A stretch of DNA of 28,235 bases, taken from a virus. Position 1 is the stretch's first letter. Each line of letters starts with the position of its first letter. A program made the translations under genes and the position numbers. Shown in pieces: positions 11,440 to 18,257 of this stretch. The notes beneath the pieces were generated by a model. That model had not been told where the DNA came from, ran no database searches, and saw nothing but the letters and a program-made list of their open reading frames with translations. The stretch is taken from positions 1-28,235 of the IMG/VR virus record IMGVR_UViG_3300036668_000156; one strand, 5' to 3'.

Positions 11440-12465
11440 ATGCTATTTGTTGATGTGAAATACGCCAATATACTTTCTCCACGACTCCGCAATTACAAAC
11501 GTAAGGGTGAATACCTGTGGAACTTTTCATGTGCTGTTTGCGGAGACTCCTCAAAGAATAAACTCAAGGCAAGAGGTTTCATCTACAAGGTCAAGATGGG
11601 GCTCTTTGTAAAGTGCCATAACTGTGGGTATAGTACAAACCTTGGCGCCTTCATTAAGTATATCGATACTTCTTTGTATCAAGAGTATGTACTTGAGAAC
11701 TACAAAGAAAGCGGTGCTCCAAGATCTGCTCACAAGAGCGTTGATATTGCAATTCCATCTATCCTAAAATCCCCTGAATTAACAGATTCAATACTCGATC
11801 CAATCAAGCGGTTGGATAGTCTACCTATCGATCACCCTGCTGTTAAGTATTCCCTCAACCGTAAAATCCCCTCAAAGCTCTTTCATCTCCTATACTTTGC
11901 TCCCAGATTCAAACAGTATGTAAATACAGTCGTTCCAGGTAAGTTTAAAATGGAGACCGATGAGCACCCACGTCTGATTATTCCGTACTTTAACCTGCAT
12001 GGCAAGTGCTTTGCTTTTCAGGGTAGAGCGTTTGGTAAAGAGGACCCTAAGTACTACACCATCAAAGTTGATGATGCAGAAGAAAGAATATATGGGTTAG
12101 ATCGAGTCAACTATGCCAAACGAATCTATATACTTGAAGGTCCAATTGACTCACTTTTCATTCCCAATGCTATTGCAGTATCGGGTTCATCATTCAACTC
12201 ACCTAGTGTAGAAGCTCTAAAGGTTAATGCAACTGTTGTGTATGATAATGAGCCAAGGTCACCAGAATTAAGCAAACTCATTAAGAAGACTATTGATGAG
12301 GGATTTTCAGTTTGCTTGTGGCCCGAAGCTGTGACTGAAAAGGATGTGAACGAAATGATAATGGCAGGTAAGTCACCAGAAGAAATATTGTCTATTATCA
12401 ATGAAAATACTTATAATGGAGCAGAAGCAAGGTTACGATTTGCAACATGGAGAAAATGCGAATGA
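11440..12465 (+). CDS. 61: DNA primase, T4 gp61-like
   Basis: A 341-residue protein, the length of T4 gp61 (about 342). The N-terminal zinc ribbon has CAVCGDS (Cys31, Cys34) and CHNCGYS (Cys59, Cys62). The C-terminal half carries Toprim-type elements: LEGPIDSLF with the catalytic Glu, then VVYDNEPRS with the acidic metal site. It should make short RNA primers for lagging-strand synthesis together with the gp41-type helicase. GAGGTG lies before the ATG. It follows a 120-nt A/T-rich gap that probably contains a promoter, although I could not fix one with proper spacing. It overlaps the exonuclease gene by 4 nt. Confidence 0.85.
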   Translation: MLFVDVKYANILSPRLRNYKRKGEYLWNFSCAVCGDSSKNKLKARGFIYKVKMGLFVKCHNCGYSTNLGAFIKYIDTSLYQEYVLENYKESGAPRSAHKSVDIAIPSILKSPELTDSILDPIKRLDSLPIDHPAVKYSLNRKIPSKLFHLLYFAPRFKQYVNTVVPGKFKMETDEHPRLIIPYFNLHGKCFAFQGRAFGKEDPKYYTIKVDDAEERIYGLDRVNYAKRIYILEGPIDSLFIPNAIAVSGSSFNSPSVEALKVNATVVYDNEPRSPELSKLIKKTIDEGFSVCLWPEAVTEKDVNEMIMAGKSPEEILSIINENTYNGAEARLRFATWRKCE

Positions 12466-12878
12466 ATTTGTTTATTGATTGTGAGTTTAATGAGTTTGGA
12501 GGTAAGCTCATTTCAATGGCTATTGTGTCAGAAGATGGTAAAGAATTTTATGAAGTTTTACCTTGCGAAAATCCAGGTGATTGGATCAAAGAGAACGTCC
12601 TCCCAATACTAAATAAAAGTCCCGTCAGCTTTGATGTGTTCCAAATGAAACTTCAAACATTCCTTGGGCAGTTTGAAACCATCCACATTATTGCCGACTG
12701 GCCAGAAGACATCAAGCATTTTTGTGAATCACTAATAACAGGTCCTGGGTTCAGGTTAAGTACTCCACCCATCCTTATGTCCCTTCATCGTATAGATACG
12801 GTGTCTGATCTTCCACACAATGCTTTAGCAGATGCTAGAGGAATTGCAAAATATTTTAAGGACAATCCTTCAACATGA
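12462..12878 (+). CDS. DEDD-type 3'-5' exonuclease-like protein
   Basis: A 138-residue protein. FIDCEFNEFGG at about 4-14 supplies the first Asp and Glu of a DEDD exonuclease, IIADWPED (about 81-88) the second Asp, and HNALADARG near 122-130 the final His and Asp of the DEDDh class (RNase T, DnaQ and oligoribonuclease relatives). It probably trims RNA or DNA 3' ends. I chose ATG 12462 because it overlaps the primase stop (ATGA) and has GGAG 9 nt upstream; a start at 12447 is possible. It overlaps thyX by 4 nt, within a nucleotide-metabolism run. Confidence 0.72.
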   Translation: MNLFIDCEFNEFGGKLISMAIVSEDGKEFYEVLPCENPGDWIKENVLPILNKSPVSFDVFQMKLQTFLGQFETIHIIADWPEDIKHFCESLITGPGFRLSTPPILMSLHRIDTVSDLPHNALADARGIAKYFKDNPST

Positions 12879-13576: not shown

Positions 13577-14962
13577 ATGAATAACATTGTACACGGTATT
13601 ACAGTTGACTATAGCAGAGATGAGATGTTCTCCGAATCAGGTCTATCACGATTGAAAGAGGGGTATATGCATGAGGGTGAAAAGTCCCCCCAAGAGAGGT
13701 TTGCTTTTGTTTCAAAAACATTTTCATCGAATCCAGAGCATGCACAACGTCTTTATGACTATGCATCGAAAATGTGGTTATCTTACTCTACCCCTATTCT
13801 GAGCTACGGTAAGACCCTTCGGTCATTGCCGATATCTTGTTTTGCTTCATACTTGGGTGACTCAATGAGATCTATCCTCGATACATCTTCAGAGACTCGT
13901 ATGCTAGCAGTGGTTGGCGGAGGGGTTGGGTTGCATGTTGGTCTTCGTCCAGGTGACAAAAAATCATCGGGCATTATTCCTCATTTAAAGACTTACGACA
14001 TAGACACGCTTGCATTTAAGCAAGGTACTACTCGGAGAGGTGCAACTGCTGCTTACTTGGATATCAATCACCCCGAAATTGTTGACTTCCTTGAAATGCG
14101 CAAGCTCACAGGAGGAGATCCCAACCGTAAGTGCTTAAATCTACATCATGGCATCAACGTGTCAGATGACTTCATGCAAAGAGTAGAGAAGCTGTCTTTA
14201 CATGGAGATACTTTAACAGCCGAACAGAAAGAAGTGATAAATAAGTTCCCCTTGATAAACCCCAACACAAAAGAAGTTGTGGAGTATGTCTCTGTGATGG
14301 AGTTGTGGGAAAGGATCCTTACTATTCGTATGGAAACAGGTGAGCCATATCTTTGGTTTATCGATACGGCAAACAAAGCATTACCTGAGTTTCAAAAAGC
14401 AAAGGGTTTAGTGAATAGAGGATCGAATCTTTGCTCGGAGATATCATTGGCTACTGATGAAAATCGTACTTTTGTTTGTTGCCTGTCTTCGATTAATGCT
14501 GAAAAATATGAAGACTGGAAGAATGATAATCAATTTGTTGCTGATGTAGTTGAGATGCTCGATAATGTCATTACTGTATTTTGTGAAAAAGGTAGATCAG
14601 TTACAGAGATTGCCAGTGCTATTTTTTCTGCTGAACAAGAAAGATCTATTGGTATTGGAATGCTTGGCTGGCACGCCTTGTTACAAAGTAAAGGCATTCC
14701 TTTTGAATCTCCAATGGCAGTTGGACTAAATAGAAAGCTGTGGGAAAAACTAAACAAAGACGCTAAAGCAAAAACAAAACAGTTAGCTGAGGAACGAGGA
14801 CCATGTCCAGACTCAGCTGAGGGTACGGTTTATGAAATTGAGCTGGATAATGGATCTACTATTGAAAAGTATGGTTTTGATATGATTCAAGTGTTCCGCA
14901 ACGGCGCTACGCAAAACGTAAGAGTATGTGAATTGGCAGAGAGCGACGAAATAAATCTGTAA
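13577..14962 (+). CDS. nrdA: Ribonucleotide reductase large subunit, N-terminal piece (NrdA-a)
   Basis: A 461-residue fragment of class I NrdA. The three active-site cysteines are here: Cys88 in PISCFAS, the thiyl Cys286 in NLCSEI with Glu288, and Cys301/302 in VCCLSS. The family sequence stops at RGPCPDSA (about 414). It then continues for about 47 foreign residues rich in beta strands (VYEIELDNG, FRNG, ELAESDEI) that look like a Hint/intein-type module or homing-endonuclease-linked tail. The N-terminus begins right at the catalytic domain (KSPQERFA), so the ATP-cone that mediates dATP feedback is absent. The rest of NrdA is encoded downstream, so activity needs the two pieces to assemble. 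Aeromonas phage Aeh1 has a known NrdA in pieces. Confidence 0.9.
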   Translation: MNNIVHGITVDYSRDEMFSESGLSRLKEGYMHEGEKSPQERFAFVSKTFSSNPEHAQRLYDYASKMWLSYSTPILSYGKTLRSLPISCFASYLGDSMRSILDTSSETRMLAVVGGGVGLHVGLRPGDKKSSGIIPHLKTYDIDTLAFKQGTTRRGATAAYLDINHPEIVDFLEMRKLTGGDPNRKCLNLHHGINVSDDFMQRVEKLSLHGDTLTAEQKEVINKFPLINPNTKEVVEYVSVMELWERILTIRMETGEPYLWFIDTANKALPEFQKAKGLVNRGSNLCSEISLATDENRTFVCCLSSINAEKYEDWKNDNQFVADVVEMLDNVITVFCEKGRSVTEIASAIFSAEQERSIGIGMLGWHALLQSKGIPFESPMAVGLNRKLWEKLNKDAKAKTKQLAEERGPCPDSAEGTVYEIELDNGSTIEKYGFDMIQVFRNGATQNVRVCELAESDEINL

Positions 14963-14967
14963 TAATT

Positions 14968-15226
14968 ATGTTTGCAGCTGCCCTCTCTATTGCTAAAAAA
15001 GGCAAGCCAACAAGGAATAAGGGCATTACAGGTGATCAATATAGGCAACACTATACCACAGGATTAACTCCACCCTCTATGGCTGGGGGTATGGATTAAT
15101 AACGGTGTAGAGCAACGTAAAATTTTACACTCAGATGACATGCCAGAAGGGTGGATTCGGGGACGTTGTGATATTAGAGGTGACAACAATTCAACAAGGA
15201 AGAAACGAAGTGAAAATAAAATCAAT
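14968..15226 (+). pseudogene. Homing endonuclease remnant inside split nrdA
   Basis: Between the two nrdA pieces, one frame (14968-15099) reads ALSIAKKGKPTRNKG, a NUMOD3-like helix motif. From 15092 a shifted frame reads WINNGVEQRK and MPEGWIRGR, the usual C-terminal end of phage HNH and GIY-YIG homing endonucleases. The catalytic domain is absent and the two parts are out of frame by one base, so no intact nuclease remains. This is the likely cause of the gene split. Family assignment rests on motif memory; a profile search would settle it. Confidence 0.68.
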
Positions 15227-15806
15227 TAAACCCAAACAGCCATTAGTGCGAAATAGCCACAGCTTTGCAATTGCTCCCAATGCAAGTAGTTCAATTATTC
15301 TCGACACCTCCCCGTCAATTGAACCCTATCGCGCTAACGTGTATTTGGAAAAAGGTGTTAACGGAACTAAAGTACACAAAAATAAGTATCTTGAAAAGTT
15401 GCTTGAGTCCAAAGGTAAGAATACAACTGAAGTTTGGAGAGACATTGTATCATGTGAGGGGTCTGTTCAGGGACTAGATTGCCTTGAAGAGTACGAAAGA
15501 GATGTATACAAGACTGCAATGGAAATAGATCAGACATGGTTAATTCAACATGCTGGTGATCGACAGCCATATGTGTGTCAAGCACAATCGTTAAATTTGT
15601 TCTTCAGTCCAACTGTTGATATTGAATTACTACACTTGGTACACTTGATGGCTTGGAAGGTAGGATTGAAGAGCTTGTATTATTGTCGTTCGGATGCAAT
15701 GCGTAAGGCCGATAAGGTTGGAAAAAGAGTCATCCGTGAACGTATTGAAGATATGAAAGAGATGTTGAAATCAGATGAGCCAGTTTGCATTGCATGCGAG
15801 GGATAG
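15210..15806 (+). CDS. nrdA: Ribonucleotide reductase large subunit, C-terminal piece (NrdA-b)
   Basis: A 198-residue fragment. It resumes NrdA at about residue 14 with SHSFAIAPNASSS and continues to the end. It has the paired Tyr of the radical path (LYYCRS, Tyr157-Tyr158) and the C-terminal redox Cys pair (VCIACEG, Cys193 and Cys196) that reduces the active site. I chose GTG 15210 because AAGGA lies 9 nt upstream; an ATG at 15135 in the same frame has no such site and would read through the endonuclease remnant. It ends 4 nt before nrdB. With NrdA-a it would rebuild a whole large subunit. Confidence 0.85.
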   Translation: MKIKSIKPKQPLVRNSHSFAIAPNASSSIILDTSPSIEPYRANVYLEKGVNGTKVHKNKYLEKLLESKGKNTTEVWRDIVSCEGSVQGLDCLEEYERDVYKTAMEIDQTWLIQHAGDRQPYVCQAQSLNLFFSPTVDIELLHLVHLMAWKVGLKSLYYCRSDAMRKADKVGKRVIRERIEDMKEMLKSDEPVCIACEG

Positions 15807-15810
15807 AGAA

Positions 15811-16785
15811 ATGATACAAAAGAAAAAATCGTTATTTGAGCCAAGAGAGTATTACAAGCCGTTTGAATACGAGCAAGCGTATAAGTTTTATGAGATGTCA
15901 GAAAAGATGCATTGGCTAGTGGATGAGGTTTCAATGCATCAAGACGTGTTAGATTGGAAAACTAAACTAACATTCCAAGAAAAGCACTTCCTCACCCAGA
16001 TCTTTAGATTGTTTACTCAATCAGACGTTGATGTGGCTGGTGCATATGCCAACAAATATATTCCTCTGTTTCCAAAACCAGAGATCCGTATGATGTTGTT
16101 AAGCTTTGCAGCTCGCGAGGCTATTCACATTCAGGCTTACAGTCACCTGATTGATACTCTTGGTATGCCAGAAAGCACATACAAAGCCTTTATGGAATAC
16201 GAGGCAATGCGTGAGAAGCATGATATGGTTGAGTCCTTCATGGGCACAGATAACAACATGATTGTGCAGCAGATTGCCACGTTCTCTGCATTTACGGAAG
16301 GCATGCAGTTGTTCTCGTCATTCATTATGCTCTTGAACTTTACTCGATTCAATAAAATGAACGGTATGGGTCAGATCATTGCCTGGTCTATCAAGGATGA
16401 GTCGCTTCACGTTGAAGGTATGACGTGGTTGTTTAAAGAGTTCTTAAAAGAGCATCGTGAAATTTGGACTGATGAGTTGAAAGCTCAACTATATACAATT
16501 GCAGAAAGGATGGTTGATCTTGAAGATAAGTTCATTGATCTTGCATTTGAGACAGGTGGTGTTGAGGGGTTGGCAATTGACGAAGTAAAACAATACATCC
16601 GTTACATTTGCGACCGTCGTCTAATTGGATTGGGTATGAAAGGTATCTTCAAAGTGAAGAATAACCCGCTGCCTTGGGTAGAAGAAATTCTAAACGCACC
16701 TGAGCATGCGAATTTCTTTGAGCAAAGATCTACCGCATATTCCAAGGGGTCTCTGACAGGGTCGTGGGGAAATGTCTGGAAGTGA
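15811..16785 (+). CDS. nrdB: Ribonucleotide reductase small subunit
   Basis: A 324-residue class I NrdB. Iron ligands and radical Tyr are visible: Asp in QSDVDVAG (72 or 74), then EAIHIQAY giving Glu103, His106 and radical Tyr110, and later DESLHVEG with Glu and His. It makes the diferric tyrosyl radical that NrdA needs to reduce ribonucleotides. I chose ATG 15811 because GAGGGA lies just before it and a start at 15775 would overlap nrdA. The C-terminal peptide that docks on NrdA is present (ends GSWGNVWK). No defect is seen. Confidence 0.95.
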   Translation: MIQKKKSLFEPREYYKPFEYEQAYKFYEMSEKMHWLVDEVSMHQDVLDWKTKLTFQEKHFLTQIFRLFTQSDVDVAGAYANKYIPLFPKPEIRMMLLSFAAREAIHIQAYSHLIDTLGMPESTYKAFMEYEAMREKHDMVESFMGTDNNMIVQQIATFSAFTEGMQLFSSFIMLLNFTRFNKMNGMGQIIAWSIKDESLHVEGMTWLFKEFLKEHREIWTDELKAQLYTIAERMVDLEDKFIDLAFETGGVEGLAIDEVKQYIRYICDRRLIGLGMKGIFKVKNNPLPWVEEILNAPEHANFFEQRSTAYSKGSLTGSWGNVWK

Positions 16786-16832: not shown

Positions 16833-17699
16833 ATGCAATATACAAGAAAGCAATATCCCAGGGAAGACGGCGAAACCGATCGTGATTATGTTACACGAGT
16901 GATATCGCTGAACCCCAAGGGGTATGCTCCTTTTGTACGTACACTTGACTTTGTAAAAAACATCGAAGATTCAGCTGGGCAGACTTTTGGCGAGAAGCTT
17001 TTTAATTGGTTAAACCCAAGTAAAGATATTAGTTGCGTGCAATGTGGACAACCAACACAATTCAAACAACTTTCGCATGGCTATTACGACTTTTGTTCAT
17101 ACACGTGTAGAGCAAAGCATAACCAAAGCTACAAAAATGGTTGCAGTGAGCATGCCAAAGCTCAACGAAAATTAGCATATGATACAAACAAAGAATCGAT
17201 TATATCGAAAAGTAAGGCAACAAAACTAGAACGTTACGGTATGGTTGGCAACCCAAAAGCTGCCGAATCAGCCCATCTATTGAAATTGCAAAGACACGGC
17301 GTAGAGGCGGTTAACGCTCTGACCAATGTCGATACTATGATACAATACATACAGATCGATATGATGACGTCTGAACAAATAGGTAACTTACTCGGCGTGT
17401 CCCCGACTGTGGTTCAAACGCACGCCAAGAAGTTAGATGTAAAGTTTCCTAAAATTAACGGGCAGTCCAAAGAAGAGCACGAGTTGTATAGATGGGTTCA
17501 GTCGCTTGGAGTGGATACACAAGCGAGAGATCGATCGATGGGCATTGAGAATGAAGCATATCACCTCATGACTATCAATGTGCTAGAAAAGGTGTTTGAT
17601 AAATATGATCAGTCAGATATAAAAGATGTACTACTTGCAACAATCGTAAAGTTGGTTGTTGAGAATTTTGTACTTAATTTAAAACTAAGAGAAAAGTAA
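16833..17699 (+). CDS. Homing-endonuclease-like protein lacking its nuclease domain
   Basis: A 288-residue protein. Residues 65-95 form a zinc finger (Cys68, Cys71, Cys88, Cys92). The LERYGMVGNPKAAES segment near 132-146 and a helix-turn-helix (about 175-200, EQIGNLLGVSPTVV) are typical DNA-binding parts of large phage homing endonucleases. At 211-235 the text SKEEHELYRWVQSLGVDTQ...RDR matches the opening of a Vsr-like (EDxHD) nuclease domain, but it stops there. From about Met236 an unrelated helical tail (ENEAYHLMTINVLEKV) follows. The active site is therefore missing. Either a deletion fused two genes, or ATG 17538 still starts the tail as its own small gene. AGAGG precedes the start at 16833. 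Confidence 0.6.
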   Translation: MQYTRKQYPREDGETDRDYVTRVISLNPKGYAPFVRTLDFVKNIEDSAGQTFGEKLFNWLNPSKDISCVQCGQPTQFKQLSHGYYDFCSYTCRAKHNQSYKNGCSEHAKAQRKLAYDTNKESIISKSKATKLERYGMVGNPKAAESAHLLKLQRHGVEAVNALTNVDTMIQYIQIDMMTSEQIGNLLGVSPTVVQTHAKKLDVKFPKINGQSKEEHELYRWVQSLGVDTQARDRSMGIENEAYHLMTINVLEKVFDKYDQSDIKDVLLATIVKLVVENFVLNLKLREK

Positions 17700-17700
17700 C

Positions 17701-17853
17701 ATGGTCGTCAAGCAATTCGAATGCGAACAATGCGGTGCAAATGGTAAGATTACAGTCAAGGGAAGCGATTTCCAGTTTGAGGATCTTGTGTGTTGCCCAG
17801 TGTGCGGAAGTGATATATACGAGGAAGAGGACCTTCCTGAAGAAGACGAATGA
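17701..17853 (+). CDS. Small zinc-ribbon protein
   Basis: A 50-residue protein with two CxxC pairs: CEQC at 8-11 and CPVC at 32-35, the spacing of a rubredoxin-like zinc ribbon. The last 12 residues are nearly all acidic (EEEDLPEEDE). Such mini zinc ribbons may bind nucleic acid or RNA polymerase; no role is known for this one. It begins just after the upstream stop and its stop overlaps the next ATG (ATGA). Confidence 0.7.
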   Translation: MVVKQFECEQCGANGKITVKGSDFQFEDLVCCPVCGSDIYEEEDLPEEDE

Positions 17854-18257
17854 GTTGGATCTGTAGTGGGAGTGTGATAGAGGAAATTGATTTCCAATAT
17901 AAAGCATTCGTATATATCATCACAAACAAAATAACAGGCCGTATGTATATTGGTCTCAAACAAACTACATTTGCTAAAACCAAACAAGTGAAGGGCAAGA
18001 AAAAAAGGATTCATGTTGAGTCAGATTGGCGTGATTACTGGTCCTCATCAGAAGAGTTAAAAAGAGATGTACAAGCTCTTGGATCTGAGAACTTTACTCG
18101 TGAAATACTGTATTGGTGCAAGCTCAAGTCCCATGCTAACTATCTAGAAGCTAAAGAGCAAATGGATAGAAGAGTTTTAGAGAATCCGGACCAATACTAT
18201 AACGGTATCATTAATTGTCGTGTTTCTCGTAATCACATAAAGAATTTGTCTATATGA
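17850..18257 (+). CDS. GIY-YIG-type nuclease-like protein
   Basis: A 135-residue protein. FVYIITNKITGRMYIG (about 19-34) is the GIY-YIG core with its Y-I and Y-I-G strands, followed by a basic KGKKKR and YLEAKEQ with the likely catalytic Glu. This family includes Seg homing endonucleases of T4, but the protein has no separate DNA-recognition domain, so it may be a free-standing or domesticated form. ATGA coupling to the zinc ribbon and the next gene (ATGA at 18254) places it firmly in the operon. Activity is not certain. Confidence 0.7.
   Translation: MSWICSGSVIEEIDFQYKAFVYIITNKITGRMYIGLKQTTFAKTKQVKGKKKRIHVESDWRDYWSSSEELKRDVQALGSENFTREILYWCKLKSHANYLEAKEQMDRRVLENPDQYYNGIINCRVSRNHIKNLSI

What the first reader, a model, noticed from the sequence alone, without database searches (positions are those of the whole stretch)
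14819..15229. NrdA in two pieces with homing-endonuclease debris and a Hint-like tail
NrdA stops being NrdA after CPDSA, gains about 47 residues resembling an intein/Hint beta module, and resumes after a NUMOD3-like and WINNG/PEGW endonuclease tail that is frameshifted. All catalytic residues survive, split over two ORFs, with a new GTG start and ribosome site for the second. Aeromonas phage Aeh1 has a functional NrdA in pieces created by mobE; here the endonuclease has decayed while the split persists.
Basis: partly seen in the sequence, partly recalled or inferred. Interest (0 to 1): 0.66.

Follow-up and report, generated by a model that had tools for sequence, protein, structure and literature searches.

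The report
Phage NrdA split by dead endonuclease
An uncultured phage makes the large subunit of its DNA-building-block enzyme (ribonucleotide reductase) from two separate genes, because a selfish homing-endonuclease gene once landed inside it and has since decayed while both enzyme halves stayed intact; one functional case of such a split (phage Aeh1) is already known, and this is an independent one at another position.

Summary
In this IMG/VR phage contig nrdA is two ORFs: NrdA-a (13577-14962) and NrdA-b (GTG 15210-15806). They are separated by about 420 nt that close relatives lack: 105 homologous loci read straight through the site. The insert holds a certain remnant of a homing-endonuclease C-terminus (WINNG...PEGWIRGR) and a weak NUMOD3-like piece in another frame. 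No nuclease domain is left. Every active-site residue is kept, split over the two ORFs.

The architecture matches Aeromonas phage Aeh1 (NrdA-a with a foreign tail, endonuclease, NrdA-b starting inside its 3' end), which I compared directly. The cut lies elsewhere in NrdA and the endonuclease is dead, so this is an independent event.

The 'Hint/intein' part is not supported. The 47-residue tail has no detectable relatives, about 2% of shuffles match phage intein N-domains as well, and all splicing residues are missing. There is no sign of a group I intron.

New result: both NrdA halves evolve 2-3 times faster on this branch than in a sister phage, NrdB somewhat so, flanking genes not. NrdA-b still keeps all 47 near-invariant positions. 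Most likely the split NrdA works as a two-chain subunit; this is inferred, not shown.

The parts
13577..14962 (+). nrdA-a ORF (461 aa): N-terminal part of NrdA with the PISCF, NLCSE and CCLSS active-site motifs, plus a foreign tail
   Evidence: PF02867 E 5e-64 at profile 2-339 and PF00317; alignment A1
14819..14962 (+). 47-residue foreign C-terminal tail of NrdA-a plus stop; origin unknown
   Evidence: absent from all relatives; no family or structure match
14968..15099 (+). NUMOD3-like endonuclease piece (MFAAALSIAKKGKPTRNKG...), weak
   Evidence: 13/500 shuffles as good at best; together with the C-terminal piece it aligns to the GIY-YIG endonuclease of phage KP182, E 1e-3
15068..15229 (+). 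remnant of homing-endonuclease C-terminus (VWINNGVEQRKILHSDDMPEGWIRGR...KIN*), in another frame from the NUMOD3-like piece and without its nuclease domain
   Evidence: 0/500 shuffles as good against KP182, RHph_I1_18, RB11-B, fPSFA, L007 and L008 endonucleases; phrog_10820 E 0.0017
15196..15202 (+). Shine-Dalgarno-like AAGGAAG, 7 nt before the GTG
   Evidence: sequence
15210..15806 (+). nrdA-b ORF (198 aa from GTG): C-terminal part of NrdA with the SLYYC tyrosines and CIACEG tail
   Evidence: PF02867 E 1e-35 at profile 378-522; 0 of 47 near-invariant columns changed
15210..15245 (+). 12-residue non-homologous N-terminal extension of NrdA-b (VKIKSIKPKQPL), overlapping the end of the endonuclease remnant by 20 nt
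   Evidence: homology starts at residue 13-14
15811..16785 (+). nrdB, intact small subunit, next to nrdA-b
   Evidence: PF00268 E 3e-71

Best explanation
A free-standing GIY-YIG or HNH homing-endonuclease gene inserted into nrdA at a tolerant loop between the CPDS helix and the VRNSH strand. It split the gene into nrdA-a (reading on into 47 foreign codons) and nrdA-b (starting at a GTG inside the endonuclease 3' end). The endonuclease then lost its nuclease domain and frame. The two NrdA chains are made separately and associate without splicing into a working class Ia large subunit that pairs with NrdB, as in Aeromonas phage Aeh1. Shown: the insertion relative to relatives, the endonuclease remnant, intact complementary halves, and selection on the invariant core. 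Inferred: translation from the GTG, assembly and activity.
For: Empty site in close relatives and 105 uninterrupted loci. Significant endonuclease C-terminal remnant. The Aeh1 locus fetched here shows the same layout: NrdA-A with a 36-residue foreign tail, MobE, and NrdA-B starting 14 nt inside mobE. Both halves are open and keep all motifs; NrdA-b departs at 0 of 47 near-invariant columns despite 18 lineage-specific changes, P 0.004. SD plus GTG for NrdA-b. Alone, NrdA-a models poorly through residues 79-158, which fits a need for NrdA-b. Endonucleases sit between nrdA and nrdB in L007, L008 and L030, so this operon is a target.
Against: No expression, assembly or activity data. The right junction is seen in one metagenomic contig only. 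Substitutions are in excess in both halves, and NrdA-a has 5 nonsynonymous against 1 synonymous change relative to L006, which could also mean decay. The 47-residue tail matches no known endonuclease part.
Confidence: 0.64

Rival explanations
1. The insertion killed nrdA; both pieces are a young pseudogene on the way out and the phage relies on host reductase.
For: Raised substitution rate in both halves and partly in NrdB, not in ThyX or the primase-like gene. NrdA-b changes fall on columns of average conservation instead of variable ones, and NrdA-a departs at two near-invariant columns. 5 nonsynonymous to 1 synonymous against L006.
Against: No stop or frameshift in nrdA-a, nrdA-b or nrdB although the endonuclease between them is broken. 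All catalytic motifs are kept and 0 of 47 near-invariant NrdA-b columns are changed. A GTG with a fitting SD serves NrdA-b.
Confidence: 0.2
2. Assembly or sequencing artefact: a chimeric join of nrdA with an endonuclease fragment from another phage.
For: Only the window carries the right junction; the near-identical contig L006 breaks off 26 nt into the insert.
Against: L006 is a distinct genotype (98.2% identity here) with the same left junction, 26 of 26 nt. A chimera would not be expected to supply a start codon and SD in frame with NrdA-b.
Confidence: 0.07
3. A group I intron (with an eroded endonuclease) is spliced from the mRNA and restores one NrdA.
For: The insert size (about 420 nt) would allow it, and removal of a length of 1 mod 3 would restore the frame. 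nrd genes of phages often carry such introns (PMC3653736).
Against: No Rfam match up to E 5. RNA folding no better than shuffles, z -0.56. NrdA-b has its own start.
Confidence: 0.04
4. Remnant of a split or fractured intein; the tail is a Hint fragment, possibly still trans-splicing.
For: The tail looks beta-rich (YEIELDNGS...VRVCELAESDEI) and ends like an intein N-part; the short KIKSIK at the NrdA-b start recalls intein C-parts. This is pattern resemblance from memory only.
Against: No Hint profile hit. HMM score equalled by 2% of shuffles and by 3% of random protein pieces. No N-terminal Cys, TxxH or His-Asn. None of the three full-length phage NrdA inteins read (Vibrio 424E50-1, CcrColossus, Gurke) sits at this site.
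Confidence: 0.04

Closest known systems
Aeromonas phage Aeh1 nrdA-a / mobE / nrdA-b (genes-in-pieces ribonucleotide reductase, Friedrich et al. 2007 as cited in PMC2988022 and PMC3653736)
   Same: NrdA in two ORFs around an endonuclease gene; non-homologous tail on NrdA-a (36 aa in Aeh1, 47 here); NrdA-b starts inside the endonuclease 3' end (14 nt in Aeh1, 20 here); all motifs kept between the two chains.
   Different: Aeh1 is cut at profile position 221/222, between NLCxE and the next active-site Cys. Here the cut is at 339/378, so all three Cys motifs stay in NrdA-a. MobE is a full-length HNH protein; here the endonuclease is a fragment of another type. Aeh1 is reported active; this one is untested.
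Listeria phages A511/P100 split nrdA with a 210-nt spacer (PMC3653736)
   Same: nrdA coding regions separated by a short sequence without an intact endonuclease.
   Different: The spacer there shows traces of an intein and matches an intron of phage A9, according to that paper. Here neither is found and an endonuclease remnant is. The A511/P100 locus was not compared here.
Fractured genes with split inteins (Dassa et al. 2009, cited in PMC3653736)
   Same: Phage nrdA in two ORFs with an endonuclease gene between them.
   Different: No intein halves detectable here.
Seg-like GIY-YIG and HNH homing endonucleases of T4-like phages (e.g. Klebsiella phage KP182 UNY40946)
   Same: C-terminal WINNG...PEGW..GR segment.
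   Different: No nuclease domain, frameshifted, no start codon for the C-terminal piece.

Membership tests
Endonuclease-split nrdA (Aeh1 type) | two separate ORFs give complementary, complete parts of NrdA | tested here: met
   PF02867 2-339 and 378-522; motifs
Endonuclease-split nrdA (Aeh1 type) | relatives have the uninterrupted gene at that site | tested here: met
Endonuclease-split nrdA (Aeh1 type) | a homing-endonuclease gene lies between the parts | tested here: inconclusive
   only a remnant: C-terminal segment certain, nuclease domain absent
Endonuclease-split nrdA (Aeh1 type) | NrdA-b start overlaps the endonuclease 3' end | tested here: met
   GTG 15210, remnant stop 15229; Aeh1 14 nt
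Endonuclease-split nrdA (Aeh1 type) | same insertion site as Aeh1 (common descent of the split) | tested here: not met
   profile 221/222 in Aeh1 against 339/378 here; so similar in kind, not the same insertion
Endonuclease-split nrdA (Aeh1 type) | the pieces assemble into an active enzyme | not testable with these tools
   needs protein biochemistry
Intein / split intein | Hint profile match | tested here: not met
Intein / split intein | N-terminal Cys/Ser, TxxH, C-terminal His-Asn before the extein | tested here: not met
   three-frame reading of the insert
Group I intron | conserved catalytic core / Rfam match | tested here: not met
Functional homing endonuclease | intact nuclease domain in one ORF | tested here: not met

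The most novel reading that the evidence does not exclude
The split has outlived its parasite and become fixed: NrdA is now a permanent two-chain subunit, the foreign 47-residue tail and 12-residue extension are tolerated or used in assembly, and NrdA-a, NrdA-b and NrdB have undergone compensatory change, a natural case of gene fission driven by a selfish element.
Probability: 0.3. Interest if true: 0.65.

Novelty: new variant of a known kind. Interest (0 to 1): 0.44.

Why it matters
Very few natural cases are known in which a selfish gene cut an essential enzyme in two and the enzyme kept working without splicing. A second, independent cut at a different place, with the selfish gene already dead, would show that such fission can become permanent. 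It would also give a direct test of how a radical enzyme tolerates a break in its barrel, and of whether the broken subunit and its partner evolve faster to compensate.

Tried and rejected
Hint/intein origin of the tail: family scans, targeted profile searches, a home-made HMM from 15 phage NrdA inteins with shuffle and real-protein controls, AlphaFold of the tail (pLDDT 63) and Foldseek (best E 0.8) all gave nothing significant. The tail as a displaced endonuclease domain: no support. Relatives of the tail in viral and genome contigs: only the near-identical L005/L006 and chance hits, L002-L004 in an unrelated protein. Group I intron: no support. Other contigs carrying the right junction: none. 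Another split at this site among NrdA relatives: none in the loci checked. Full texts of the Aeh1 and fractured-gene papers are not held, so what is said of them rests on reviews that cite them and, for Aeh1, on its genome record.

Full report
What was checked. The window is an IMG/VR phage record of 28,235 bases. In it nrdA-a is 13577-14962 and nrdA-b is best read from GTG 15210 to 15806, with nrdB at 15811-16785. NrdA-a matches PF02867 at profile positions 2-339 and NrdA-b at 378-522. The gap in the profile is the region that is short in these phages: relatives have only six residues between CPDS and VRN(A/S)H.

The insertion is real relative to relatives. The closest phages (L007 86% identical in NrdA-a; L008, L009, L013, L030) read through the site in one ORF. 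In a wider set of loci brought in by the NrdA alignment, 105 are uninterrupted with near-constant spacing, and the window is the only clean split. A second genotype (L006, 98.2% identical over this stretch) shares the left junction for 26 nt before its contig ends. No other contig with the right junction was found, so that junction rests on one assembly.

What lies in the insert. The segment VWINNGVEQRKILHSDDMPEGWIRGR (within 15068-15229) is a homing-endonuclease C-terminus: no shuffle out of 500 scored as well against endonucleases of KP182, RHph_I1_18, RB11-B, fPSFA, L007 and L008, with supporting hits in PHROGs and tblastn. The KKGKPTRNKG piece before it lies in another frame and is only weakly supported as NUMOD3. 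No nuclease domain remains. The endonuclease is therefore dead. Relatives L007 and L008 carry a GIY-YIG-type and L030 an HNH-type endonuclease between nrdA and nrdB, so this operon is a repeated target.

The tail of NrdA-a (47 residues) has no relatives in any collection reached. As a test of the Hint idea I built an HMM from the N-terminal domains of 15 phage NrdA inteins. The tail scored 1.7 bits, equalled by 106 of 5000 shuffles and 154 of 5000 random pieces of phage protein. It has no N-terminal Cys, no TxxH, and no His-Asn precedes NrdA-b. Targeted PF14890 and TIGR01445 searches were empty. AlphaFold gave three low-confidence strands and Foldseek nothing significant. I conclude that the Hint label is unproven and that splicing by this sequence is excluded on residues. 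A group I intron is not supported either.

Comparison with Aeh1. In the Aeh1 record, NrdA-A ends its homology at NLCIEIALPT and carries a 36-residue foreign tail; mobE follows after 46 nt; NrdA-B starts 14 nt inside mobE. The window has the same plan: foreign tail, endonuclease remnant, NrdA-b starting 20 nt inside the remnant. The cut is elsewhere: profile 221/222 in Aeh1, between NLCxE and the next active-site Cys, against 339/378 here. All three Cys motifs therefore stay on NrdA-a, and the tyrosine pair and C-terminal Cys pair are on NrdA-b. Foreign tails thus seem a normal by-product of such insertions, which makes an intein origin unnecessary. By the reviews, the Aeh1 split enzyme is functional (PMC2988022, PMC3653736).

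Does it still work? For: no stop or frameshift in nrdA-a, nrdA-b or nrdB while the endonuclease is broken; all motifs kept; none of 47 near-invariant NrdA-b columns changed although 18 lineage-specific changes occurred (chance 0.004); a fitting SD and GTG. Ambiguous: a relative-rate comparison with L007 gives 26:11 changes in NrdA-a and 18:6 in NrdA-b (outgroup L008), NrdB 18:11 to 20:8 depending on outgroup, ThyX 17:17 and the primase-like gene 32:37. Excess change in the reductase genes only fits compensatory evolution after the split, but also relaxed constraint. Against L006, NrdA-a shows 5 nonsynonymous and 1 synonymous codon changes, too few to decide. The timing of the changes relative to the split is not known. 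The AlphaFold model of NrdA-a alone is poor at residues 79-158, as expected if NrdA-b is needed, but the alignment was shallow.

Verdict. A confirmed, independent case of the Aeh1 kind of split reductase, with an eroded endonuclease; a new variant of a known kind. The Hint claim is not supported. Function is likely but untested.

Noticed in passing
window 16833-17699: Homing-endonuclease-like ORF (phrog_3339, E 3e-12) matching only positions 47-276 of a 536-position profile; looks like another eroded endonuclease just after nrdB.
   Followed up: partly
window 17850-18257: SegE-type GIY-YIG endonuclease (PF19835, E 6e-33), so the nrd operon carries at least three endonuclease genes or remnants.
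   Followed up: partly
L007:5847-6602, L008:5851-6492, L030:6331-7140: Different endonuclease types (two GIY-YIG-like, one HNH) occupy the nrdA-nrdB gap in close relatives, while the window has none there.
   Followed up: partly
window 14819-14962: The 47-residue tail is beta-rich and protein-like but has no relative in any collection searched; its origin stays unexplained.
   Followed up: yes
L006:2707-2884 against window 12461-12466: The near-identical contig L006 has about 180 nt more than the window between the primase-like gene (11440-12465) and the next ORF.
   Followed up: no
L142:1084-1536 (Synechococcus phage RB11-B): 151-aa protein with the WVNNG...PDGW endonuclease segment and a DG-type domain but no recognisable nuclease domain; possibly another decayed or nuclease-free homing protein.
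   Followed up: no
window 13850-14525 against L006: NrdA-a differs by 5 nonsynonymous and 1 synonymous codons between the two split-bearing genotypes, ThyX by 3 and 4; too few to test, but odd for an enzyme core.
   Followed up: partly
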